The notes beneath the pieces were generated by a model. It was not told where the DNA came from, did not search any database, and saw only the letters and a program-made list of their open reading frames with translations. Below are positions 5,407 to 61,275 of a DNA stretch of 64,000 nucleotides, in pieces. The stretch spans positions 1-64,000 of the IMG/VR virus record IMGVR_UViG_3300032050_000024; one strand, 5' to 3'. A program made the translations under genes and the position numbers. The number at the start of each line of letters is the position of its first letter. Within the stretch, counting starts at the first letter, position 1. This DNA comes from a virus.

Positions 5407-5850
5407 TCACCATTTTCTACAAGACCAATATCTAGCTTTCCATCTTGGCCCTGGAGTTTCACAACGATGTCTTGCTCTAAATGAACGCCTACGTGCTGGA
5501 TTGCTTTTACGGATTCTCATATTGGGGTCGCCAAAGTTGACCTTTACAACGTTGCCTTTGTCATTTTTAACGTAAACTTTGAATTTCTTAACATCGCCGC
5601 GCATTGGTTTACCCAATTGCACTTTGCGACCTTGATATTCTGCTTCATTAAGTCCTGGTTGAACCATTTCAATGAATTCAGGTTTATCTGTAGCGTATGC
5701 TTCTTTAATATATTCTACTAAGCATTGTTCACAAAAACCTTCTGCTTCGTTAATAGGAACACAATTAGGAACTTTCTTTTTCCCTTTCTTTTTCATTCCA
5801 ATCATTTCATATCCAGACCAACATGGATCTGATTCATCAATATACTGCAT
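5407..5850 (-). CDS. Conserved phage protein with Cys motifs and basic C-terminal domain
   Basis: A 147-residue protein. The N-terminus (ESDPCWSGYEMIGMKKKG, then VPNC) is a segment I associate with many phage structural or accessory proteins. CEQC follows. The basic C-terminal domain carries FGDPNMRIRK, RARHRC and YWSCRKW, another recurrent phage domain (DUF5872-like by recollection). INEAE near residue 34 could be a prohead-protease-type (I-x-E) site. The start overlaps the stop of the neighbouring metallopeptidase by one base. It could be a virion-associated protein; the function is unknown. Confidence 0.7.
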   Translation of the reverse strand: MQYIDESDPCWSGYEMIGMKKKGKKKVPNCVPINEAEGFCEQCLVEYIKEAYATDKPEFIEMVQPGLNEAEYQGRKVQLGKPMRGDVKKFKVYVKNDKGNVVKVNFGDPNMRIRKSNPARRRSFRARHRCETPGPRWKARYWSCRKW

Positions 5851-6599
5851 TACAACTCCTGACGTATTGCTAATTTAGGGAGATATTCTCTCCATGTTTT
5901 TAATATATATTCTTTATCTTGATTTATCAATGTGCCGTTGTTAACCCATAAATCTAAATAATCATTTACTACTTGTTTAAACGGTTGTTTGCTTTTTTTA
6001 GCTTTGAAATATAAACCTTGTATCATTGCTGGGATTTCTTTTGGCAATGTAAAGTATCTTGCTGCCGGCATTTTACCAGATTCTATTTTTTTACGAAGAG
6101 CTTGATCTGATGCAATGTATTTTCCATCTATCGTATTCCAACCACTTTGCGTTGTATGTTCAATTTCATGACGAAGTATGTCTCGAAGATGCATTGCAAC
6201 ATCACTTAATATGCGAGGATAGTCTGCAGGATCCATTTCAAATCGTATTTCAATAAGCGGTGGTTCGGCTGAATCACGTGTTGTTGCATTGTATGCATCT
6301 CCACCGTATTTAAAATCATTGAGTCCTTCAACCCACATTACTTTGAATGCCAAATAAAATTCTACGGGAATAGTTGTATTTTCTACTTCTTCAAAATAGA
6401 TATGCGTAAATTCTGAATCATCATCAATATTAGGAACTGTTTCTCCTTGTTTGAAATAAATCTTTTGACCAGAGAAGATGCCAGTATAATCATCTACATT
6501 TTCATAACTATCTTTTATGATGCTTAGTAGTTTGTTTGATAGCGATGTTACTAAACTATCGTAACGACCTTCAACTATAAGATTCTTTAATGATATCAT
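5850..6599 (-). CDS. Putative zinc metallopeptidase with capsid-targeting-like leader
   Basis: A 249-residue protein. It opens with MISLKNLIVE, one of the shared leaders of this window, ending in I-V-E, which fits a T4-type prohead protease site. Near residue 140 it has HEIEHT, an HExxH zinc-binding motif, inside a helix-rich region. The ATATTTAT motif lies five bases before the start, with no ribosome binding site. I infer a head-packaged peptidase injected into the host. That it is a metallopeptidase rests on the single motif; the substrate is unknown. Confidence 0.72.
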   Translation of the reverse strand: MISLKNLIVEGRYDSLVTSLSNKLLSIIKDSYENVDDYTGIFSGQKIYFKQGETVPNIDDDSEFTHIYFEEVENTTIPVEFYLAFKVMWVEGLNDFKYGGDAYNATTRDSAEPPLIEIRFEMDPADYPRILSDVAMHLRDILRHEIEHTTQSGWNTIDGKYIASDQALRKKIESGKMPAARYFTLPKEIPAMIQGLYFKAKKSKQPFKQVVNDYLDLWVNNGTLINQDKEYILKTWREYLPKLAIRQEL

Positions 6600-8207: not shown

Positions 8208-9038
8208 TCATTTGATTTTTAATTTCTGACCTGGCTTTATTACAGTTGATTTCAAGTTATTTAATTTTTTGATAACATCTACTTTAGTATCATATTTTGA
8301 TGCAATACCAGATAAAGTGTCTCCAGAAACAACTGTATGATATGATGTGGCAGTTGTTTTAGTAGTTGTTTTTGTCTTAGGTGGATCATATAAATCTAAA
8401 ACGGCGTTGATGTCAGTATCTTTCATTTGTTTAATGATATCGTCATCTGTAGTTTGTTTTTTTGGTGTTGATGTTTTAGATGTAGTAGATGCAATCGCAT
8501 TGTAAATTTCAGTTGCTTTTGCCGTACGATCTTTTAATTTAGGTGCACCAGCTCTTTCATAATATGTAACAACAGCTTTTGTTGCTCCCTCAACTGTTTT
8601 TTGAGCTTTTATTTTATCCCATGCTGTTTTTTCAGTTCCATCTAATTCAGAAATTATAAAATCTAGTTGATCATTTGTAGTTTCTGCACCAGCTGCTATT
8701 AATTTATTTTTTCGGCCTTCTGTCCATTGAGCTAAACCATATCCAGCCCATCCGGGTTGTTTTTTTGCTTGATCTGGCGTAGTTGGTTTAAATCCAAATC
8801 CTAATTTTAAACCTTTAGTTAAATTTTGACTAACATTTGGTCGAACGCCACTTTCTACTGCAAAATTTCCTATGAAAGCCGCTGCATGTACTTTGCTAAA
8901 TCCATTTTTAATTAAATAGTTTGCCGCAGCAATTCCTCGCTTCAACCAACCATCATATAATAATTCATATTCAGATTCCGGAATTTCTGTTTTTTTAGAT
9001 TTATCATCTTCAAATAATAATTGTTTTAAACGTATCAT
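8208..9038 (-). CDS. Phage tail-lysozyme-type muramidase with LysM and capsid-targeting-like leader
   Basis: A 276-residue protein. Residues 1-10 are MIRLKQLLFE, the shared leader ending L-F-E. Residues about 25-175 resemble the phage tail-lysozyme family (AAAFIGNFAVESG, then WAGYGLAQWTEGRK), with a likely catalytic Glu in AVESG. A Thr/Lys-rich linker follows, then a C-terminal LysM (YHTVVSGDTLSGIASKYD). It would bind and cut peptidoglycan. If the leader does target the capsid, this enzyme would be carried in the head and released on injection. The alternative is a tail-associated lysozyme. The start overlaps the previous stop by four bases. Confidence 0.83.
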   Translation of the reverse strand: MIRLKQLLFEDDKSKKTEIPESEYELLYDGWLKRGIAAANYLIKNGFSKVHAAAFIGNFAVESGVRPNVSQNLTKGLKLGFGFKPTTPDQAKKQPGWAGYGLAQWTEGRKNKLIAAGAETTNDQLDFIISELDGTEKTAWDKIKAQKTVEGATKAVVTYYERAGAPKLKDRTAKATEIYNAIASTTSKTSTPKKQTTDDDIIKQMKDTDINAVLDLYDPPKTKTTTKTTATSYHTVVSGDTLSGIASKYDTKVDVIKKLNNLKSTVIKPGQKLKIK

Positions 9039-9367
9039 CGTCCCTTTTCCTCTCGTATTATCAATTCACCTAATACTTCTAAACGACCTACTTCTCTTTG
9101 AAATTCAATTTGTGTCATTGAAGTAGATATGCGTTTATATGTAGCATCAAACTCTGCTTTTGCTTTTTCTAAATCAAAACGTCCGGCAGCTGCTCGTTTA
9201 TAATATGGTAATTTAACTTTGAAATGATGCCATGTAAGAAGAGCTAAGCCTCCTTTTTTATGAGCTGTATCGGCAATCTTTTCTGCACCCGCTTCTCGTG
9301 TATCTGCAAAGGTTTCAAAAGTTTCTGGTTTGTCTTTTGATTCAAAAAGTAAATTCATTAGTTTCAT
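9035..9367 (-). CDS. Hypothetical protein with capsid-targeting-like leader (110 aa)
   Basis: A 110-residue protein opening MKLMNLLFE (L-F-E at 7-9), the shared leader. The remainder is charged and helical (LEKAKAEFDATYKRIS) with no family I recognise. An exact ATATTTAT motif abuts the start with no ribosome binding site, and the gene overlaps the packaged-lysozyme candidate downstream by four bases. I infer a small head-internal protein. Confidence 0.65.
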   Translation of the reverse strand: MKLMNLLFESKDKPETFETFADTREAGAEKIADTAHKKGGLALLTWHHFKVKLPYYKRAAAGRFDLEKAKAEFDATYKRISTSMTQIEFQREVGRLEVLGELIIREEKGR

Positions 9368-28948: not shown

Positions 28949-30811
28949 TTATGTAATTTGTAGGTCGCCTGGTTTATAATTTAGTTTAATTTTTTGTTTT
29001 TGATTTTTTACTATTAATTCTTGATTCAACCAATCAATATACTGATTAATATCAGTCATACTATTTCTAGTCCAACATATTAATATATATTTCCAATATT
29101 GATAGTTTGCATTATTAATTAGATTATCTGGAGTTAATTTAATTGCAGTTAACATATGTTCTTTGGTAATCTTATCACTAGTATCTAAATTCATTGCATG
29201 TTTAAATTGCGTTAATCTAGATTGATGTTCATTAATGTCACATGCATAAAAATTCATGCTTGGGTCTGGATCTGGCTTTTTGGAATACTGTATCCATTGT
29301 TCTAGAGTGCCTATAGGTATAGAATACTTAGAGCTAATTGAATTCAGTTGTTTATTAGTTGGAAAAACTGCGTCAGTTGTTGCACCAAAAATACGATACC
29401 ACAGTCGATCCGACTCCGAACCTATATTCGTACTATATGGTTGTATTTGTTTCCATTTTTTCTTTGAATTCATAGGAAAATGATTCCAGCATGAATGTTG
29501 TAATTCATGAATCGTAGTACTAAGTACCTCTCGTAGTGCAGATTGATAATCTTCGCTAAATAAACCGCTAGCAACATTATCATATGTATATATACCTAAA
29601 GCAGCAAATCCTTTTAAGTTAGCTACATTTATGGCAACAGAATTAGTAGATGGCGAAAAATATCCGTTATAATTAGCTGAGATATCATGTACAGTTTCAA
29701 TTGGTACAGTTTTAATAATATCTTTGTATTTGTTAATTATTTGATTAACTTCTTGTTTAGTTTTTTTCCCATATTCAGAATTTGAAGAAAAATTTACTCG
29801 AGTAAAAATCTTTTTAAATTGCGGAGTACTTAATTTATCAATCCACCATTTTCTAGCTTCTGCATAGGTGGGTTGAAGAACTTTTGCAAAATGTTTTGTT
29901 ATAATATCAGCATATTCGTTATTTAAAAAATACGTATATGATTTATTAGTAACTATTTGTAGCCATATACTAAATTTTGCACCTAATTTTAAGTTTCCAG
30001 GACCGGAAATAGTATCAATTGCAACAGTTAATATCATGTTGTTTGGAGATAAAATAGTTGGATTATTTGATATATCTTTAAAATTTTTAATATTAAAAGT
30101 AATCATACCTATTTTTTGGTTTCCAAACGAAATCTTTTTTGAATTTCTTCGATATACCCAATTTCCGTAATACATGAACTCCGAATCTAAACTATTCCCA
30201 GGTGTTTGTAATTTCCAACCCATTGATTTAAAACTTTCATATAGTTGATCAAAAAATCCATATGAAAATTTTCCAACTTGATTTTGTAATGGTTTAATTA
30301 TATCTAAAATATCCTTCCAAGATATCGTATATTCTTCTTCTAACCATTGAAACAATGTTTGGCCATCATATACCCAATTTTTAATCAAAGCTGAAAGTTG
30401 AGTTTGCGTTTTTATCTTTTTTAATTGTTCTAAAAAATCTCCAGATCCGATTCCTGTTAATGCACTTCGCATTGCTTCGGCAATATGTTTAATTTGTTGC
30501 CAATCTTGTACTGTAGATGGCTTTGATCTAGAAGTATCAAATATTTTCTTAACTTGATCTTTATTTGCATTGGATTTACTAACTCCTAATTCAGCTGGTT
30601 TAAGTGGTTGAAATTCACCGGATTTTCCTAAACGATCCGAATTTCTAGTATTATATCGTTGCTGCTGGTATAGTGCATCTAAATTTGCTGCATCTTGTTT
30701 TGCCCAAAGTTTCTTAAGACTTTCCGGGGCGTTTTCTTCAGGATCTGTAACAGTTGGATCTAACGGATCTGTAACAGGTGCTTCTAAAATAATTTTTTTT
30801 AATTTAATCAT
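28949..30811 (-). CDS. Large putative metallopeptidase with capsid-targeting-like leader (620 aa)
   Basis: A 620-residue protein. Residues 1-10 are MIKLKKIILE (I-L-E), the shared leader, followed by an acidic Pro-rich linker. Near residue 437 is TIHELQHSCW, an HExxH zinc motif. No other domain is recognised. Start context: an ATATTTAT motif, seven bases, then ATG, with no ribosome binding site. I infer a head-packaged protease delivered with the DNA, analogous in delivery to T4 internal proteins. The peptidase call rests on the one motif. Confidence 0.7.
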   Translation of the reverse strand: MIKLKKIILEAPVTDPLDPTVTDPEENAPESLKKLWAKQDAANLDALYQQQRYNTRNSDRLGKSGEFQPLKPAELGVSKSNANKDQVKKIFDTSRSKPSTVQDWQQIKHIAEAMRSALTGIGSGDFLEQLKKIKTQTQLSALIKNWVYDGQTLFQWLEEEYTISWKDILDIIKPLQNQVGKFSYGFFDQLYESFKSMGWKLQTPGNSLDSEFMYYGNWVYRRNSKKISFGNQKIGMITFNIKNFKDISNNPTILSPNNMILTVAIDTISGPGNLKLGAKFSIWLQIVTNKSYTYFLNNEYADIITKHFAKVLQPTYAEARKWWIDKLSTPQFKKIFTRVNFSSNSEYGKKTKQEVNQIINKYKDIIKTVPIETVHDISANYNGYFSPSTNSVAINVANLKGFAALGIYTYDNVASGLFSEDYQSALREVLSTTIHELQHSCWNHFPMNSKKKWKQIQPYSTNIGSESDRLWYRIFGATTDAVFPTNKQLNSISSKYSIPIGTLEQWIQYSKKPDPDPSMNFYACDINEHQSRLTQFKHAMNLDTSDKITKEHMLTAIKLTPDNLINNANYQYWKYILICWTRNSMTDINQYIDWLNQELIVKNQKQKIKLNYKPGDLQIT

Positions 30812-41262: not shown

Positions 41263-41321
41263 CGTATTTCGTAATTTATTTTAACGTCACCAAACGTTGT
41301 TGTTACTACCCAATTCATCAT
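41259..41321 (-). CDS. Candidate 20-residue microprotein
   Basis: A 20-codon frame (MMNWVVTTTFGDVKINYEIR) whose start overlaps the queE stop and whose stop overlaps the thioredoxin start, both by ATGA-type four-base overlaps. It fills the gap exactly. It may be a real peptide or merely a coupling ORF that carries ribosomes to thioredoxin. Confidence 0.35.
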   Translation of the reverse strand: MMNWVVTTTFGDVKINYEIR

Positions 41322-42106
41322 ACTCCTCTTTTTGTATCATATGCAATAATATGGTCTCTTCCGGTCATGTTATACCCATGTTCGGCACACATTTCAAATA
41401 CAATAGGATACATTTTAATAAGTTCTTCTCTAGTGTCGCCAGCTGGCATAATGTATGTCTTTTCTTTTGGAATAAGTAATTCTACACGTAACTCTTCAAT
41501 TTCGTCAAGATTCTTTTCCGTGCCATCCCATACTGGTTTGTAATGATAATCTTTGTGATACATTATCATTTCTTTCATTGCCGTTTTATTGAGTCTAAAT
41601 TTATTGTGTTGTGTAATCATTTTTTCATCGACCACTGCTTTCTGAGGTGTTTCAGTCCCCAAAACGGGAATACTATTACTAAACTTAGGACTGAGGCTAA
41701 TGACATCAATTGGAAAATCAGTAGCAATAAAATGAGATCCTTCAGTTTCGATAGTAATGATAATATTTCTTTCATGTGCAAAGTGTGTTAATTCGTTAAC
41801 TAATGCGGGATGCATTGTAGGAGATCCACCCGTTAACATCATTTCTGTAATGTGAGGATTCTCGTCATATATCTTTATGATATCATTAAATGTAAACGTT
41901 CCTTTCTCCGGATGTATTGAAGTATACCAGCTATCGCACCAACCTCCTTCTCCAAACCAACATCGATGCGTGCAACCCGTAGTTCTTACGGCAATAGTCG
42001 GTCTACCAAAACGAGAACCTTCACTTTGTACACATCTATATAATTCAACAATTGGTAAGACTTTGTCATAGTCTGCGATTCTTTTAGAATGGGAGGTCAT
42101 AGTCAT
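41318..42106 (-). CDS. queE: QueE-like 7-carboxy-7-deazaguanine synthase (radical SAM)
   Basis: A 262-residue radical SAM protein. AVRTTGCTHRC begins the Fe-S motif, but the third Cys comes in GGWCDSWY after seven residues rather than two (CX3CX7C). MMLTGGSPTMH is the SAM-binding GG motif and ITIETEGSH follows. QueE converts carboxy-tetrahydropterin to 7-carboxy-7-deazaguanine. FolE and QueD genes lie just upstream. The likely start is one of two nearby ATGs (42106 or 42100). Confidence 0.87.
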   Translation of the reverse strand: MTMTSHSKRIADYDKVLPIVELYRCVQSEGSRFGRPTIAVRTTGCTHRCWFGEGGWCDSWYTSIHPEKGTFTFNDIIKIYDENPHITEMMLTGGSPTMHPALVNELTHFAHERNIIITIETEGSHFIATDFPIDVISLSPKFSNSIPVLGTETPQKAVVDEKMITQHNKFRLNKTAMKEMIMYHKDYHYKPVWDGTEKNLDEIEELRVELLIPKEKTYIMPAGDTREELIKMYPIVFEMCAEHGYNMTGRDHIIAYDTKRGV

Positions 42107-42485
42107 CTTCTAGTTTAGTTGGTATTTCTAATTTTTTAATTACTTCAGCAAATTTAGCTTCTAAGTCTTCTAATCGTTTCTGTATTTTAATTAATTCAGA
42201 ACGTCTTACAAATGGAGTTCGATCTACTTCAATGTTATTGGCATTGTCCACATTACCAAAATACTCATCTAGAAATGTTAGTGGATATATTTGTACCTGA
42301 GTATATTCTGGCTTTTGAGCTTCTTTAGGAAGAGTTCTCCATTTAATGTCAATACCTCGTTTAATGGCTTCTGCTGTAACTTCTCGGCCGATATTAGTAC
42401 CGCCAGAACCTTTACCTAAATACTCATAAAGTGATATGTATTGTTCTTCACTCTTCATAACTTGCTGAATTTCTTTCGTGTTCAT
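42084..42485 (-). CDS. Hypothetical protein with coiled coil and SSB-like tail
   Basis: A 133-residue protein. An N-terminal region contains EYLGKGSGGTNIGREV. A short coiled coil (QKRLEDLEAKFAEVIKKL) follows, then an acidic tail ending DDYDLPF, much like the protein-binding tail of bacterial SSB (DDDIPF). It overlaps queD (38 bases) and queE (23 bases). Unassigned; the tail suggests it might attract SSB-binding partners or mimic SSB. Confidence 0.6.
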   Translation of the reverse strand: MNTKEIQQVMKSEEQYISLYEYLGKGSGGTNIGREVTAEAIKRGIDIKWRTLPKEAQKPEYTQVQIYPLTFLDEYFGNVDNANNIEVDRTPFVRRSELIKIQKRLEDLEAKFAEVIKKLEIPTKLEDDYDLPF

Positions 42486-42912
42486 AAACTTCTACTTTAA
42501 CGGCTCGTACTCTGCCTTCGGTTTCTTCTCGTAAAAAATCATTTATTGTTTTGTAAAGATATTCGGCAAATCGTTCGCAACCTGTAGCTTCCAGGATTCT
42601 GAGTTGGATTATGCCATCTTTATCCATTTGTTTGAAATTTTCTAAGTAAGGGTCATCTTGTGCTACAATTGTAGTATGATCTAATAAAAATGCAAAATAA
42701 TCTTTTGGTGACATACCAGAAATTGATGTTTTTGCACGTTTCATGCCACCAAAGTCAAATACCCAATTACGTTGATCTAAATCACCTTCAAACCATACTC
42801 GGAATGATACTGCATATCCGTGTAAGAATTTGCAATGAGTACCATCTGCTCGCCATTGACGAAAGCATGTTGAATATCCGTCGAATAGTTTAGTTGATTT
42901 AAACTTTGCCAT
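42448..42912 (-). CDS. queD: QueD-like 6-carboxytetrahydropterin synthase
   Basis: A 154-residue T-fold enzyme. CKFLHGYAVSFRVWFEG carries zinc-ligand His, WVFDFGGMK the substrate loop, LLDHTTI and ATGCERFAEYL the rest of the active site (Cys and Glu). It converts dihydroneopterin triphosphate, the FolE product, to carboxy-tetrahydropterin. It lies one base from folE and overlaps the following gene. Confidence 0.9.
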   Translation of the reverse strand: MAKFKSTKLFDGYSTCFRQWRADGTHCKFLHGYAVSFRVWFEGDLDQRNWVFDFGGMKRAKTSISGMSPKDYFAFLLDHTTIVAQDDPYLENFKQMDKDGIIQLRILEATGCERFAEYLYKTINDFLREETEGRVRAVKVEVYEHERNSASYEE

Positions 42913-42913
42913 A

Positions 42914-43579
42914 TCAATAACCTTTTACAAATTCATAAAATTCTGCTCGGGTAGCATCATCATCTCTAAATGCACCAGTTAATTTGGATGTCTTCATTGA
43001 AGCTCCGCCATGTTTAACTCCGCGACATTGAACACAATTATGAGTTGCTTCAATCATAACAGCTACACCTTTATTGTCATTGATAATAGTATTAATAGCA
43101 TTATGAATTGCTACTGTCAATTGTTCTTGTATTGCACCTCTTCTACCAAAATGCTCTACTAATCGATTCAATTTTGATAAACCAATTACTTTGCTGTCAG
43201 TACCTGGAATATATGCAACATGAACTCGACCCATAATAGTTTGATGATGATGTGAACACATTGAAGTTAACGGAATACCTCCTTCAAATACCATACCATC
43301 ATATCCATCAGATGGAAATGCAGTAATGTCTGGAGTGCCATCATATCGACCAGCCCATAAATCATTTACATATGCTTTTGCAACTCTTCTAGGAGTATCT
43401 GAACTATTAGGGTCATTCCTCCAATCACACTTTAACGCATCAAGAAACTCACCAAATGCCTTGGCAGCTTCTTCAATCATTTTATCTTTTTCTTGTCGGG
43501 TAAATGGTGCACCTGGTGCAGAACCATTTGCGTAACCTAATTTAACTAATTCTAAATTTTGCTTTTGTTTTTCTGTCAT
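42914..43579 (-). CDS. folE: GTP cyclohydrolase I
   Basis: A 221-residue enzyme of normal family length. TSMCSHHHQTIMGRVHVAYIP contains zinc-binding Cys and His, followed by GLSKLNRLVEHFGRR, QEQLT and the second zinc Cys in ATHNCVQCRG. It opens GTP to dihydroneopterin triphosphate, the first step towards 7-deazaguanine as well as folate. With QueD and QueE downstream, the base-modification route is the likely one. Confidence 0.95.
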   Translation of the reverse strand: MTEKQKQNLELVKLGYANGSAPGAPFTRQEKDKMIEEAAKAFGEFLDALKCDWRNDPNSSDTPRRVAKAYVNDLWAGRYDGTPDITAFPSDGYDGMVFEGGIPLTSMCSHHHQTIMGRVHVAYIPGTDSKVIGLSKLNRLVEHFGRRGAIQEQLTVAIHNAINTIINDNKGVAVMIEATHNCVQCRGVKHGGASMKTSKLTGAFRDDDATRAEFYEFVKGY

Positions 43580-43641
43580 AACTTAATATTAATTTTAATA
43601 TAATAAAATTTATTGGGGTTTCAAAGTTTTTATGTAAACTT

Positions 43642-44082
43642 TTACATGTTCGGATCACCTGGGGTATCAATACCGGATGCATCGTATTTTGTTTGATTTA
43701 ATTTAACTAAATTTACGTTAATTGTTTGTTTACCTAAGGCCCAATTGGCAACAAGTCTATGATGTCCATCATAAATTGCCATTTCTCCATCTACAAACTG
43801 AACTGCATTAATTGGCGTTGTTGCATTTATATTTGCAATAATTTGCTTTACTTTATTGCTTTGAATGTTTGGTTGAGTTATTCGAATGTCTGAAATATTA
43901 ACAGTTTCTGGGGTTGCTGTTTTTTGATTTGTTTCAAATGCTTGTATCACCTCGTTCCAGGTATGACGACTCATTTTAAATACATCTTTTATATTTTTTG
44001 CGTCATCAAATAATTTACCTGCAGGTAGTTTATCAATTCGAGTATGATTTGTTTCATTTAATAAATTACGTAATCGTATCAT
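43642..44082 (-). CDS. ParB-like protein with capsid-targeting-like leader and shared C-terminal tail
   Basis: A 146-residue protein. Residues 1-10 are MIRLRNLLNE (L-N-E). Residues about 60-125 resemble the ParB/Srx N-terminal fold: VNISDIRITQPN, then VQFVDGEMAIYDGHHRLVAN with the DGHHR motif that in ParB-like proteins binds nucleotide or cleaves DNA. The last 16 residues (TKYDASGIDTPGDPNM) are identical to those of the neighbouring, otherwise different protein. An ATATTTAT motif abuts the start. Inferred to be packaged and injected. Confidence 0.75.
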   Translation of the reverse strand: MIRLRNLLNETNHTRIDKLPAGKLFDDAKNIKDVFKMSRHTWNEVIQAFETNQKTATPETVNISDIRITQPNIQSNKVKQIIANINATTPINAVQFVDGEMAIYDGHHRLVANWALGKQTINVNLVKLNQTKYDASGIDTPGDPNM

Positions 44083-44086
44083 ATTA

Positions 44087-44094
44087 ATAAATAT
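44087..44094 (-). promoter_or_regulatory. ATATTTAT promoter-like motif abutting an ATG
   Basis: Exact motif with TAAT and then the ATG of the ParB-like gene. The 17 bases TTAATATGATACGATTA are identical at the next gene upstream. Confidence 0.5.
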
Positions 44095-44097
44095 TCT

Positions 44098-44589
44098 TTA
44101 CATGTTCGGATCACCGGGCGTGTCGATGCCCGATGCATCATATTTTGTATTAATTACTCTAATTAGTTTACTATTAACTAAACATTTTTTTATGTTAACA
44201 ACAAAAACTGAAAGATTATTTGGATCTTCAGAATATCCTTCTACGGTATTATGATAAATAAATTCATTGTAATTGCCGTATTTTATAAAATCCTCAGTTG
44301 TATGACCAGCACCTTCGTCTACATCCATCATGATTTTTGGATATGGATTTACTAATCTGATATTAATTTTATATTCATAAAAAACTGAGTAATGATTCCA
44401 TAACGAATCAATCCTAGTATCTACTTGCTCACTAGTACCTAAATGTATTGGTTGATTAGATGTTACAAAATCTATTTTATTTGAAGATCCATGATATGTA
44501 GTTAACATCAAGCCAGGTTTAATTCCTTGACTGTGAATAGTGTCCGGCCAAAATGAATTTTCCATTAATAAATTTTTTAATCGTATCAT
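44098..44589 (-). CDS. ADP-ribosyltransferase-like protein with capsid-targeting-like leader and shared C-terminal tail
   Basis: A 163-residue protein. MIRLKNLLME is the leader (L-M-E). LTTYHGSSNKIDFV, IHLGTSEQ, then EFIYHNTVEG with a following beta strand SVFVVN, resemble ADP-ribosyltransferase folds of the H-Y-E class (His in HGS). The C-terminal 16 residues are identical to those of the ParB-like neighbour. T4 packages an ADP-ribosyltransferase (Alt) with the same kind of leader, so an analogous injected enzyme is an attractive inference. Activity is unproven. Confidence 0.62.
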   Translation of the reverse strand: MIRLKNLLMENSFWPDTIHSQGIKPGLMLTTYHGSSNKIDFVTSNQPIHLGTSEQVDTRIDSLWNHYSVFYEYKINIRLVNPYPKIMMDVDEGAGHTTEDFIKYGNYNEFIYHNTVEGYSEDPNNLSVFVVNIKKCLVNSKLIRVINTKYDASGIDTPGDPNM

Positions 44590-44590
44590 A

Positions 44591-44809
44591 TTAATATATA
44601 TCTTTTAGGGTAGTATTACCTTTTATATGATGCGGTTCATAAGGACAATGTCGGCATCTATTTCCACAACATGTACCTCGTTTAATGTGATATGATTCTG
44701 TAAAAACACGATATCCATTTTCATAATAAAAGTCAGTTGGAAGGAGCTTGTTTCCAAACTCCCTCACAAATGCTTGTTGTATCCAATCTTTTGACGCAGA
44801 CACTATCAT
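44591..44809 (-). CDS. DUF5522-like Cys-rich small protein (72 aa)
   Basis: A 72-residue protein with RGTCCGNRCRHCPYEP, a Cys cluster I associate with the DUF5522 family of bacteria and eukaryotes. It could bind metal. It overlaps the ribonucleotide reductase stop by one base, so it may be an accessory of that enzyme; no function is established. Confidence 0.7.
   Translation of the reverse strand: MIVSASKDWIQQAFVREFGNKLLPTDFYYENGYRVFTESYHIKRGTCCGNRCRHCPYEPHHIKGNTTLKDIY
44594..44601 (-). promoter_or_regulatory. Variant ATATATAT promoter-like motif
   Basis: The minus strand reads AGATATATATTAATATG, one substitution from the 44087 copy and in the same position relative to the ART-like start. 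Confidence 0.4.
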
Positions 44810-46665
44810 TATTTAACCTCACACGCTCCGCCTGCACAAGCTAATTCTCCTGATAAGTCAGTGTTATCATCAAGTTCAATTACTTGGCTCAAATCAATAT
44901 TAGTTAATGATTTTAACATAGATTCATATTGTTCTTTGGTAATATCCTCGAAGGGCGCTTGAGTATATGTTCCTCCATCATATGGTAATACTGATAATCC
45001 GTTGTAATGATCTCTGTTATTCCACATCCATTCTCCTGCTAATTCCCATTCATCTGCCTTAAGTGATACTGTTGCAGATACATTGTGAGTATTGTTTCCC
45101 GTTCTATGTCCTGGTTTAACCCATTCTAAATGTACTTTCTTAATGCGATCTAATAATTGGAATGGGGATTCTGTTCTTAGGATTGCACCTTCTGGAGCTT
45201 TTTGTGGTATTGAAATAACTGCAGTGTCATGTGGTCGGAAATATTCATCTTCAACTAGCTCTGGATGATTAATTGCTAGGTATGTATAAATTGCTTCATT
45301 TTTTCCTACACGTATTCTTCTTACATAGTAATCGTTGTGCCAAGCATGAATGCCCGATGATGTTCCTAAAGTAAGTGATGTTGTTCCTGCAGGTTTAACG
45401 GTTGTTGTACGAGCTGAGCGATTAATACCAATAATGCTAGCAACTCTTTCATTTTCTGTTTTTACAGCTTTTGCTGCAGCTTTCATATCATAACCTAAAA
45501 CTGTTCCAGATCCGATACCTGTCATCGATACGCCAATAAGTGCATCTTTCTCAGTTGTACGTTTCCAAATTGGACGAAGGTAATGAAAATCAGTATAACC
45601 TGCTTGAAGTGTTCCAATAAATGCTGCTGCTTTTACTCGTTCTTCTAAATCTTCTTGTGATTCAATATCCGATGCATTTACTTCACAAAGATTACAGAAT
45701 TGAAACGGACGAAGTGCAATTTCGCAACATGGGTTAGTTCCCCAATCTTTATCATTAGAAAGATATATTCCGGGTTCTCCAGCATTTGATAATTCAACAC
45801 GTTTCCACAAATCCATAAAGAAATCTCTTGTTACTTTGTGACGTATTAATACTGCTGAATTATTTGCCCGGCCTCTTTGTGGATTATTTTCCCACCAGTT
45901 GCCTGACTTACATGAAATCATTTCTTCATCATCTGCTGAAAATAAAGATATAAGTGCAGCTCTACGAATTCCTCCTGCTAGTACCGCATCTGCAACGTGA
46001 CAAACCATATCATGTACTTCAATTGGAGAAAGTTTGTCGCCATCTTCTTTTGCATCTAAAATACCTGCTAGTTTAATCAAACATTCTTTAAGTGGTTGTG
46101 GACCTGGAGCTTTTCCTCCTGATGTAACCAATCTAGCACCTTTAGGACGGATATCACTAAAATCAAACACAAATGTTGATCCGCCTTCAAAATAAGATTT
46201 AACAACAGCTTTAACTGCATCTGCCCATCCCTCAATTGAATCTGCAATAAGGAATCTACGCGTTTTCTTTGGATTTGGTTTTCTAATTTCTGGTAATTTT
46301 TCTACATGATGTGATTGAACTGAATATCCAACACCTGTACCGCCTAAAAGTAAAAACATTGCTTCACCAAAAGCTCTGTAATCATCAATTGGTAAATATG
46401 CACAATTGTAAATTCGGTTAGGGGAGATTTCAATTGGTTTTCCTCCGAATTGCAAACTTCTCATTGAAGGCAATACTTTTTTGTCATATACAAAGCGATA
46501 TGCAGCTTCTATTTCATCCCGTAATGCAGGATATTTTTTTTGATGCATTTCTTTGTTTCTTGTAACTAATTCTTCCCAAGTCTCTCGGCGGTTGAGCTCA
46601 GGAATATACTTGGCATACTTCATGTATACCGTAATTTCACTCAAAATTTTGTTTGAAATCTCCAT
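44809..46665 (-). CDS. nrdJ: Adenosylcobalamin-dependent (class II) ribonucleotide reductase
   Basis: A 618-residue single-chain reductase. YNCAYLPIDD contains the first active-site Cys, LLLGGTGVGYSV the allosteric/substrate loop, NPCCEIALRPFQFCNLCEVNASD the radical Cys region with adjacent Asn/Glu, and VKPAGTTSLTLG the substrate loop. The C-terminal ACAGGACEVK holds the redox Cys pair. The CNLCEVN pattern and single-gene form are class II, requiring B12. It supplies dNTPs for replication; thioredoxin at 41011 is the probable reductant. Confidence 0.9.
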   Translation of the reverse strand: MEISNKILSEITVYMKYAKYIPELNRRETWEELVTRNKEMHQKKYPALRDEIEAAYRFVYDKKVLPSMRSLQFGGKPIEISPNRIYNCAYLPIDDYRAFGEAMFLLLGGTGVGYSVQSHHVEKLPEIRKPNPKKTRRFLIADSIEGWADAVKAVVKSYFEGGSTFVFDFSDIRPKGARLVTSGGKAPGPQPLKECLIKLAGILDAKEDGDKLSPIEVHDMVCHVADAVLAGGIRRAALISLFSADDEEMISCKSGNWWENNPQRGRANNSAVLIRHKVTRDFFMDLWKRVELSNAGEPGIYLSNDKDWGTNPCCEIALRPFQFCNLCEVNASDIESQEDLEERVKAAAFIGTLQAGYTDFHYLRPIWKRTTEKDALIGVSMTGIGSGTVLGYDMKAAAKAVKTENERVASIIGINRSARTTTVKPAGTTSLTLGTSSGIHAWHNDYYVRRIRVGKNEAIYTYLAINHPELVEDEYFRPHDTAVISIPQKAPEGAILRTESPFQLLDRIKKVHLEWVKPGHRTGNNTHNVSATVSLKADEWELAGEWMWNNRDHYNGLSVLPYDGGTYTQAPFEDITKEQYESMLKSLTNIDLSQVIELDDNTDLSGELACAGGACEVK

Positions 46666-59346: not shown

Positions 59347-61275
59347 TTATCCTCCATATCTAGGTGTTGGGTTAAGTGATGTTGAACCGAAGGTATTATC
59401 TGTTTTAACTATTAAATTAGCAGATTCTACAGCTGTTTTTATTTGAGCGACAAACGTTGTAAATAGCGAATGCATTGATTGTTGAAAATTTCTATCTCGT
59501 TTTTCCATTTGAGCTGCATATCGATCTAAACCACCTACGTTAGTTCCTGCTAATGTCATTCCATCATTGATTCTTCGAAATTTATCTCTAGGATTAAATG
59601 ATACCATCCCATCATTAACCATAACAGCATCATTTGCAGGTACTGCAGTATTAAATGATGCATTTTCTACTGTCATTGTTTGAACTTCTTGACCGTTTAT
59701 AATCAAATTTGCAGTTCCGGTGTTACCTAACAGCTGATCTACTGTTGTTGTTATGACTGCGGTAAGTCCACCAACTCCATTTAATAAATCCGTAAACGCT
59801 GTTTTAAATTCATTATCAGCAGCTCTCGTTTTACGTTGAATTTGTGTTTCTCCTAAAGTCGTTAAAGAGTTTGTAAATGTTAAAAATTCTGCATTTGAAA
59901 CTAGTCCAAATTCTTTAATTGCATCATTCATAGCTGTTTGAGCGTCTTTAATCATCTTAACTGCTTCATCTTCGGTTCCGGCGCGTAATTTAATTCCTTT
60001 TGCTTCTATAGAACCTAAATATTCTGCAGTTCTAGTTGCAGGATCACGTAAATCTCTATTTTCATTTTCCATGATCTTAGCAATATCTTGAGTATCTACT
60101 TTTGCATCTTTTAATGCTTGTTCTAGTTTTTCTCCAGATAAATTAAGATCAATGTTGATATTTTTATCTTTTTGTATTTGACTTAATAATTTTCGTTTTT
60201 CTATCAATTGATCTAATTTTCCAGCCTCAACTCCTAATGTTTTTTGTAATTGATCTCGAGCTAATTTGTTATTTTCTAATATATCACCTTCTTGCATGAT
60301 GATTTGATTTAATGTTTCAGCTGCATCATTTGCCTGTCCTCGTAAATATTGTTCTCGATATAAATTTGTTAAACTTTTACCTTTCATTTTTGCACTAGAC
60401 TGTTCATTTCCTACCAATCTACGTCCAGTTAAAAGTTGATAATTTAATTCTTCACCAACACTAGATTCTATATTTAATAACGTTTCGCCAACTGCTTCTA
60501 AATCTGCTAATTCTAAACCCATTTGTTTTAATTTTATAACAGCTAAACCTAATTGACCTGGATATTTTTTAAATGTTAAACGAGTTCCTGCAGCTGCCTC
60601 TCCTATTCCTTTTTGTACTTCATATGCAGCTCCAGATATTTGTGTTTGTTCTTCTATTTTTTGAGCAATATAATCAAACATTACAGCTTGTTTTTCAACT
60701 TCTGCAGTAGTCCCTTTTTTTGTCATGGATGCATTAAATGCCATTAAGCCTTGAGTTGCTTCTTCACTTAAGCGTCTAGTAGTACCATAGTATTGAGCTA
60801 CTTGTTGTAAAGATTCATCTAATGAATTAACGCCATATGCTAAACCTTTTATAGCTTTACTATTTTTTTCAATTTGTTCTCGGCTAGTTTTCATGGATAT
60901 GGCTAAATCATCCATTTTATAACCCATTTTGCCGGCTTGTTCTATAGTTAATCCAAATTCTTTTTGTAAATTTTTATTTCTCTGAGCTAAAACATTGACA
61001 TCTTCTGACAAATCTTGCATTTCTTTTGCCATTTTTTGCCATTCACCCATGGCTCCGGCAATAGCCATAGTCGTTTTGGCAGTTGTTTTAGCTAATGTTG
61101 TTAAATTAGCATCAAACTCTGCATATGCTATGGCAGCTTTCTTTATGTCCGAGCTCGCTGCGGCTATGGAGTTTTTGGCATTTTCTTGTCGGCGTTGCCT
61201 TTCTTCTTCATCAAATTGACCAATTCTTGGATATTTCTTTAAAAGACTGATGATATGTTTTGAAATGGGATTCAT
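59347..61275 (-). CDS. Tail tape measure protein
   Basis: A 642-residue protein, almost entirely helical with coiled-coil stretches (EMQDLSEDVNVLAQRNKNLQ) and a hydrophobic segment near residues 65-75. Its place between the tube/chaperone genes and the baseplate genes is the usual place for the tape measure gene. Its length sets tail length: about 640 residues suggests a tail near 95 nm at 0.15 nm per residue, in the T4 range. An ATATTTAT motif lies four bases before its start. Confidence 0.85.
   Translation of the reverse strand: MNPISKHIISLLKKYPRIGQFDEEERQRRQENAKNSIAAASSDIKKAAIAYAEFDANLTTLAKTTAKTTMAIAGAMGEWQKMAKEMQDLSEDVNVLAQRNKNLQKEFGLTIEQAGKMGYKMDDLAISMKTSREQIEKNSKAIKGLAYGVNSLDESLQQVAQYYGTTRRLSEEATQGLMAFNASMTKKGTTAEVEKQAVMFDYIAQKIEEQTQISGAAYEVQKGIGEAAAGTRLTFKKYPGQLGLAVIKLKQMGLELADLEAVGETLLNIESSVGEELNYQLLTGRRLVGNEQSSAKMKGKSLTNLYREQYLRGQANDAAETLNQIIMQEGDILENNKLARDQLQKTLGVEAGKLDQLIEKRKLLSQIQKDKNINIDLNLSGEKLEQALKDAKVDTQDIAKIMENENRDLRDPATRTAEYLGSIEAKGIKLRAGTEDEAVKMIKDAQTAMNDAIKEFGLVSNAEFLTFTNSLTTLGETQIQRKTRAADNEFKTAFTDLLNGVGGLTAVITTTVDQLLGNTGTANLIINGQEVQTMTVENASFNTAVPANDAVMVNDGMVSFNPRDKFRRINDGMTLAGTNVGGLDRYAAQMEKRDRNFQQSMHSLFTTFVAQIKTAVESANLIVKTDNTFGSTSLNPTPRYGG

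What the first reader, a model, noticed from the sequence alone, without database searches (positions are those of the whole stretch)
43642..44589. Two adjacent unrelated proteins end in the same 16 residues, kept by purifying selection
The ParB-like and ART-like proteins both end TKYDASGIDTPGDPNM. Comparing the codons, I count seven differences, all synonymous, and none that changes an amino acid. The bodies between leader and tail are different. So the tail is an old duplication or exchange maintained for its protein sequence. Together with the common leader, this makes a two-ended tag: leader for packaging, tail perhaps for recognition by a scaffold, an unfoldase or the ejection channel.
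Basis: seen in the sequence. Interest (0 to 1): 0.78.

Follow-up and report, generated by a model that had tools for sequence, protein, structure and literature searches.

The report
Shared end-tag on phage cargo proteins
A family of uncultured T4-like viruses of bacteria puts the same short peptide at the very end of many unrelated proteins that also carry a T4-type 'pack me into the head' leader, so these proteins look like interchangeable virion cargo with a tag at both ends, and the end tag has not been described before as far as I could find.

Summary
In detail: both window proteins end TKYDASGIDTPGDPNM, and the seven codon differences are all synonymous. It is no two-gene coincidence. 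Scans of IMG/VR found 49 distinct proteins in at least 15 unrelated body families (ParB/Srx, GNAT, ART-PolyVal-like, kinase-like and others) ending mostly [KR][YF]D[AWFT][ST]GIDTP..[PS].M. The tail is always the last residues, on proteins with a T4-style leader (MI[RK]L..[LI]LxE, with L/I-x-E ending at residue 10, the T4 capsid-targeting rule).

A scan made with the ParB body alone, blind to the tail, found the tail on 13/13 complete leader-type copies and 0/10 complete copies in other architectures. In that unbiased set the tail is more constrained (pN/pS 0.15) than the body (0.35), although its synonymous sites have diverged. AlphaFold leaves it disordered. Most carriers occupy one islet, nrdJ–DUF5522–folE, inserted in the 3' end of DUF5522.

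Leader-only relatives without the tail are common, including at the same locus in the cultured Microcystis phage Mel-JY01, so the tail is a lineage-specific addition, not required for packaging as such. I read it as a linear docking motif on injected T4-type cargo. Its partner is unknown.

The parts
43642..44082 (-). Cargo gene 1: leader + ParB/sulfiredoxin-fold body + tail (146 aa)
44098..44589 (-). Cargo gene 2: leader + body of unconfirmed fold ('ART-like') + tail (163 aa)
   Evidence: fold not confirmed
43645..43692 (-). Tail of gene 1, TKYDASGIDTPGDPNM
44101..44148 (-). Tail of gene 2, TKYDASGIDTPGDPNM
44053..44082 (-). Leader of gene 1, MIRLRNLLNE, L-x-E ending at residue 10
   Evidence: T4 CTS rule in PMC9026906
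44560..44589 (-). Leader of gene 2, MIRLKNLLME, L-x-E ending at residue 10
44083..44094 (-). Conserved 5' block ATATTTATTAAT directly before the start codon (exact in 27 of 32 tail genes of this locus)
44590..44601 (-). 5' block of gene 2 (ATATATATTAAT); overlaps the last codons of the DUF5522 gene (..NTTLKDIY)
43610..43629 (-). Displaced original 3' end of DUF5522 (AAACTTTGAAACCCCAATAA), left behind 12 nt after the tail's stop codon: right edge of the inserted islet
   Evidence: in frame in 11 of 11 empty sites
44591..44809 (-). DUF5522 gene, site of the insertion
44809..46665 (-). Class II (B12-dependent) ribonucleotide reductase, border of the locus upstream of the cargo genes
42914..43579 (-). 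GTP cyclohydrolase I (folE), border of the locus downstream of the cargo genes
5850..6599 (-). Leader-only protein (MISLKNLIVE), no tail
8208..9038 (-). Leader-only protein (MIRLKQLLFE), phage lysozyme + LysM domains, no tail
9035..9367 (-). Leader-only protein (MKLMNLLFE), no tail
28949..30811 (-). Leader-only protein (MIKLKKIILE), no tail

Best explanation
The two genes are members of an exchangeable cargo islet of a T4-like phage. Each protein is built as leader + effector body + C-terminal tag. Inferred from the T4 rule: the 10-residue leader takes the protein into the prohead core and is cut off by the prohead protease after Glu10. The body, still carrying the tag because the tag holds no L/I-x-E site, stays in the head and is ejected with the DNA. 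The tag (GIDTP..P.M at the free C-terminus, on a flexible linker) is a short linear docking motif that a shared partner recognises after the leader has gone. I think that partner most likely belongs to the virion (core, capsid lining, portal or ejection path), where it would retain, order or feed out this subset of cargo. Shown: modular architecture, terminal position, protein-level selection, predicted disorder, leader co-occurrence, locus. Inferred: packaging, cleavage, ejection. Guessed: the identity of the partner.
For: 49 tail proteins in 13 blastp clusters (at least 15 bodies, because gene fusions merge three), all with a leader except those cut by a contig end or a frameshift. Tail exactly C-terminal in 51 of 54 matches. 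A ParB-body scan blind to the tail: 13/13 complete leader-type copies with tail, 0/10 complete copies in other architectures. Tail pN/pS 0.154 against body 0.350 and leader 0.346. Synonymous sites of the tail diverged (pS 0.61) while the 5' end of the same genes is kept at the DNA level (codons 2-4 pS 0.38; ATATTTATTAAT exact in 27/32), so recent exchange does not explain the tail. Tail disordered, body folded. Leader Glu at residue 10 or 9 after L/I-x in nearly all carriers and no L/I-x-E in any tail. In fused proteins (L006, L041, L049) the inner junction keeps only KYDAS and the full GIDTP..M occurs once, at the free end. Bodies recur as modules of polyvalent proteins and match polyvalent-protein domains (ART-PolyVal, GNAT).
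Against: No virion proteomics was found for these phages, so packaging is inferred. Leader-carrying homologues without the tail are common at other loci (L259, L262, L274, L283 and others) and at the same locus in Mel-JY01, so the tail is not generally needed for packaging. One decayed tail (G004 98116..YDWTGIKDK) and one tailless relative (G001 138912) exist. No partner is identified. I recognise no known sorting signal in the motif.
Confidence: 0.45

Rival explanations
1. The tag works after injection, in the host: it docks the effectors to a common host factor, or shields them from (or hands them to) a host C-end-reading protease or chaperone. Packaging relies on the leader alone.
For: T4 packs foreign proteins with the 10-residue leader alone (PMC9026906). 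Leader-only relatives are common. The tag should survive maturation because it has no L/I-x-E site. Free C-terminal position and disorder suit a terminal recognition motif.
Against: The bodies are so different (nuclease-like, acetyltransferase, kinase-like) that a single host target is not obvious. Other cargo of the same phages, injected into the same host, lacks the tag.
Confidence: 0.25
2. The tail is only the constant 3' end of a mobile cargo cassette: bodies are swapped between a shared 5' block and a shared 3' end, and the peptide is a passenger.
For: The islet is a discrete insertion in the 3' end of DUF5522 whose right edge lies 0-12 nt after the tail's stop codon. Empty sites exist in sister phages with 95-100% identical folE. 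Fusion and deletion forms show shuffling at the tail (L006, L041, L001). A GIY-YIG endonuclease gene sits in the locus in several contigs.
Against: A recombination handle should keep DNA, not protein: tail pS is about 0.6 with pN about 0.1, and pN/pS is lower than in the body. The tail also occurs in other loci and phages (L003, L131, L141, L157, L172, L180).
Confidence: 0.15
3. The tail is a translation signal (a nascent peptide or the terminal AUG-UAA) that controls termination or coupling to the next gene.
For: Always ends Met-stop; genes are tightly packed.
Against: The following sequence differs widely: next cargo gene, folE, DUF5522, terminator. Conservation continues 13-15 residues upstream at protein level. 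No fixed codons besides the Met.
Confidence: 0.05
4. The tail belongs to one conserved domain shared by the proteins.
For: None found beyond the shared residues.
Against: Bodies unrelated; 13 clusters; tail outside the folded domain in the ParB model; same ParB body without tail elsewhere.
Confidence: 0.02

Closest known systems
T4 internal proteins IPI-III / Ip1-3 with the capsid targeting sequence (CTS)
   Same: Diverse, accessory, unrelated proteins in hot-spot loci that share a 10-residue N-terminal leader cut at L/I-x-E; packaged and injected (PMC9026906, PMC3012670, PMC12373910).
   Different: T4 Ips share nothing but the N-terminal leader (stated in PMC12373910 and PMC3012670). Here a second, C-terminal tag is shared. 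Leader letters differ (MIRLKNLLKE type).
T4 Alt with propeptides at both ends
   Same: Injected head protein (ADP-ribosyltransferase) with processing at both termini (PMC9026906).
   Different: Alt's C-terminal piece is cut by gp21; the tail here has no L/I-x-E site and is shared by many unrelated families.
Polyvalent proteins of phages and plasmids (Iyer et al. 2017, PMC5512222)
   Same: Same kind of effector bodies: ParB-like, ART, GNAT, kinase. The ParB and family-4 bodies occur inside polyvalent proteins of other phages.
   Different: Here the bodies are mostly single-domain proteins with a leader and a tail.
Encapsulin cargo-loading peptide
   Same: Short conserved peptide, often at the C-terminus of unrelated cargo, that docks to the inside of an HK97-fold shell (PMC7355545).
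   Different: Analogy only: different sequence, no docking shown, phage head instead of encapsulin.
Microcystis phage Mel-JY01 cargo genes after nrdJ
   Same: Same locus, same leader, body homologous to tail family 3 (E 7e-10).
   Different: No tail.

Membership tests
T4-type CTS internal proteins | N-terminal leader of about 10 residues with L/I-x-E at its end | tested here: met
   rule in PMC9026906
T4-type CTS internal proteins | Encoded by a phage with T4-like head genes | tested here: met
   major head protein, portal and terminase matches in the same 130,639-base record
T4-type CTS internal proteins | Unrelated accessory bodies, variable between close relatives | tested here: met
T4-type CTS internal proteins | Present in the virion, leader cleaved, injected | not testable with these tools
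   needs virion proteomics
T4-type CTS internal proteins | Share nothing except the leader (a description of the T4 Ips, not strictly a requirement) | tested here: not met
   shared C-terminal tail: a difference, hence 'variant'
Alt-like C-terminal propeptide | L/I-x-E site before the C-terminal piece | tested here: not met
   no L/I-x-E within any tail; only two proteins have one even in the last 40 residues, both in the body
Polyvalent-protein effectors | Domains of the polyvalent repertoire | tested here: met
   ART-PolyVal 2.5e-6, just below its cut-off, and GNAT; ParB/Srx fold; modules in large fusions
Polyvalent-protein effectors | Several disparate domains in one chain | tested here: inconclusive
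   most tail proteins are single-body; three are two-body fusions
Encapsulin-type cargo-loading peptide | Peptide docks to the inner shell surface and is sufficient for loading | not testable with these tools
   no binding assay; used as analogy only

The most novel reading that the evidence does not exclude
The tail is a C-terminal sorting signal of T4-like heads, a second address read after the N-terminal leader has been cut off, which decides where in the head a cargo sits or in what order it leaves. It would be the first C-terminal cargo-handling motif shared by unrelated injected phage effectors that I know of.
Probability: 0.35. Interest if true: 0.78.

Novelty: new variant of a known kind. 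Interest (0 to 1): 0.62.

Why it matters
Short tags are how hidden virion cargo can be recognised. The T4 leader revealed the injected anti-restriction proteins; this tail marks a further set of probable injected effectors in uncultured phages, many with no recognisable domain. If the tail handles cargo inside the head or during ejection, it makes a poorly understood step (how folded proteins are stored and fed through the tail) testable with a 13-16 residue handle, and may offer a second way to load proteins into phage heads.

Tried and rejected
Tail as part of one domain: rejected. Tail as recent gene conversion between the two neighbours: rejected as the whole story, because window gene 1's tail is closer in DNA to the orthologous tail in L235 (4 differences) than to its neighbour's (7), and synonymous sites are diverged. 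Tail bound to one locus: rejected, since the locus occurs with leader cargo but no tail (Mel-JY01) and the tail occurs without the locus. dN/dS on all tails was discarded as biased, because those contigs were fetched with a protein-level tail pattern; replaced by the ParB-body set. Ribosome-binding reading of GGTGATCC...ATG: rejected, since the codons vary and the Gly is often Asn, Asp or Ala. Structure of gene 2 from a single sequence: useless (pLDDT 30). Stenotrophomonas phage DLP_3 'ParB' hit: ParB body only, no tail.

Full report
WHAT IS THERE. The window is bases 1-64000 of a 130,639-base virus record, G000. Its head genes match T4-type families: major head protein (phrog_138, E 4e-68), portal (phrog_213) and large terminase. 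The nearest named relatives by capsid protein are Microcystis phage Mel-JY01 and Flavobacterium phages 'immuto', about 55% identical. Genes 43642-44082 and 44098-44589 (both minus strand) start MIRLRNLLNE and MIRLKNLLME and end in the same 16 residues, with seven codon differences, all synonymous.

HOW FAR THE TAIL GOES. Scans of IMG/VR with DTPGDPNM-stop, with GIDTPGDP and GIDTPGNP at any position, and with a loose GIDTP...M-stop pattern gave 49 distinct tailed proteins in 13 blastp clusters. Fusions merge three bodies into the largest cluster, so there are at least 15 body families. Where the pattern did not fix them, the residues stay narrow: mostly [KR][YF]D[AWFT][ST]-GIDTP-[GNDAC][DN][PS][NTSHDI]-M. 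Among matches of the two patterns that did not require a stop, 51 of 54 are followed by exactly x-M-stop; the other three lie inside unrelated proteins. In the loose scan the chance hits were short nonsense frames without a leader, and the real ones carried the leader: a built-in control. Every tailed protein whose start is on the contig has a leader, counting L014, where a frameshift separates the two, and the atypical leaders of L033 and L196.

UNBIASED TEST. A scan with only the ParB body (no leader, no tail) found 25 contigs. All 13 complete leader-type copies (11 distinct sequences) end in the tail. The 10 complete copies in other settings do not: a standalone protein with a different leader, an 865-residue polyvalent protein, and fusions ending in a different basic C-terminal module. 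On ten aligned leader-type genes (uncorrected distances) the tail has pN/pS 0.154, the ParB body 0.350 and the leader 0.346. The AlphaFold model from 13 sequences folds residues about 25-130 (ParB/sulfiredoxin fold, Foldseek best E 8.6e-5) and leaves leader and tail at low confidence.

THE TAIL IS NOT UNIVERSAL. A second body scan (family 4) shows many leader-carrying copies without a tail (L259, L262, L274, L279, L280, L283, L289, L290). The same body also sits inside large fusions, directly after an L-N-E or similar site, which suggests that these fusions are cut by the prohead protease (inference). Main-clade tail genes lie in one locus, nrdJ - DUF5522 - folE, and none of the 17 tail-free relatives checked shows that locus in its flanks. 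The cultured phage Mel-JY01 has leader cargo directly after nrdJ, homologous to tail family 3 (E 7e-10), without the tail. Other phages carry the tail elsewhere (L003/G006, L131, L141, L157, L172, L180). The tail is therefore probably a later, lineage-specific addition that follows certain leader cargo.

THE ISLET IS AN INSERTION. In 11 of 11 empty sites the last codons of DUF5522 read AAA-ACT-TTG-AAA-NNN-CAA-TAA or close variants (..KTLKxQ). At 17 tail genes that sequence lies orphaned 0-12 nt after the tail's stop codon, while DUF5522, where it lies upstream of the cargo, typically ends instead in ..NTxLKDIY, supplied by the incoming 5' block. The 5' block (ATATTTATTAAT-ATGATACGATTA) is conserved as DNA (exact upstream 12-mer in 27/32; codons 2-4 pS 0.38) whereas the tail is conserved as protein (pS 0.61, pN 0.11; the pN of this set is biased by the search pattern, the pS is not). 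This contrast inside the same genes is the main argument against a passive cassette end. A GIY-YIG endonuclease gene in the locus of several contigs (Pfam GIY-YIG 7e-8 in L057) may drive exchange (inference). Fusions (ParB-TTKYDAS-NINK body-tail in L006; L041, L049) and a 58-residue deletion product that keeps the tail (L001) show shuffling.

MECHANISM. In T4 the first 10 residues are sufficient for head targeting and gp21 cuts after L/I-x-E (PMC9026906). Here the L/I-x-E ends at residue 10 in most carriers and 9 in a few, so the leader is very probably a capsid targeting sequence; this was not shown directly. No tail holds L/I-x-E, so the tail should stay on the mature protein. A flexible, strictly terminal, strongly selected 13-16 residue peptide on many bodies is what a docking motif looks like. 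Whether the partner is in the virion (my choice, 0.45) or in the host (0.25) cannot be decided from sequence. T4 Ips are reported to share only the leader (PMC3012670, PMC12373910), so the tail is a real departure from the known type.

LIMITS. IMG/VR contigs are mostly fragments; several tailed proteins are cut at contig starts. Counts depend on patterns that fixed GIDTP and, in some scans, the final M and TAA; only the two body scans are free of that bias. The fold of gene 2 is unknown. Distances are uncorrected. tblastn with a 23-residue query may miss weak relatives among named phages. The literature search covered only open-licence papers, so an earlier description of the tail elsewhere cannot be excluded.

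Noticed in passing
window 44591-44809 and 43610-43629; empty sites L052, L053, L054, L056, L057, L058, L062, L075, L101, L109, L114: The cargo islet is inserted in the 3' end of the DUF5522 gene, which gets a substitute C-terminus while its original last codons are left after the islet: a recurrent, precise insertion hot spot.
   Followed up: yes
L006, L020, L038, L040, L042, L057, gap between nrdJ and DUF5522: GIY-YIG (SegE/NUMOD3-like) endonuclease genes sit in the same hot spot and may drive homing of the locus; Pfam-tested on the L057 copy only.
   Followed up: partly
G000 119023-126541 (outside the window): A run of at least five plus-strand genes (and 121068-122657) with an N-terminus like MKNILAENM.RFGTKNLSE: a second leader class with L/I-x-E-like sites and differing bodies, probably a second cargo array.
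   Followed up: no
L238, L288, L297-L336 (family-4 scan): Large polyvalent proteins of phages whose family-4 modules begin directly after L-N-E type sites, suggesting polyproteins cut into separate effectors inside the head.
   Followed up: partly
L247-L254, L317, L321: Other cargo-like fusions share a different C-terminal module ending ..KYP[AS]CRPT.A.CK..GKGK.WGKTK on different bodies: possibly another cargo end-module.
   Followed up: no
window 41318-43579: folE, a 6-pyruvoyl-tetrahydropterin synthase (QueD-like) and a radical SAM (QueE-like) gene directly beside the islet: a 7-deazaguanine pathway, possibly DNA modification, next to possible anti-restriction cargo.
   Followed up: partly
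G000 and G001, about -7 to -40 of many genes, e.g. window 43642-44082, 59347-61275 and G000 86213-88051: TATTTAT(A/T) on the coding strand lies before many head and tail genes and right at the start codon of the cargo genes; a likely late promoter motif, perhaps giving leaderless mRNAs.
   Followed up: partly
L001 9732-9908: A 58-residue deletion remnant of an effector keeps leader and tail in frame although the body is nearly gone.
   Followed up: no
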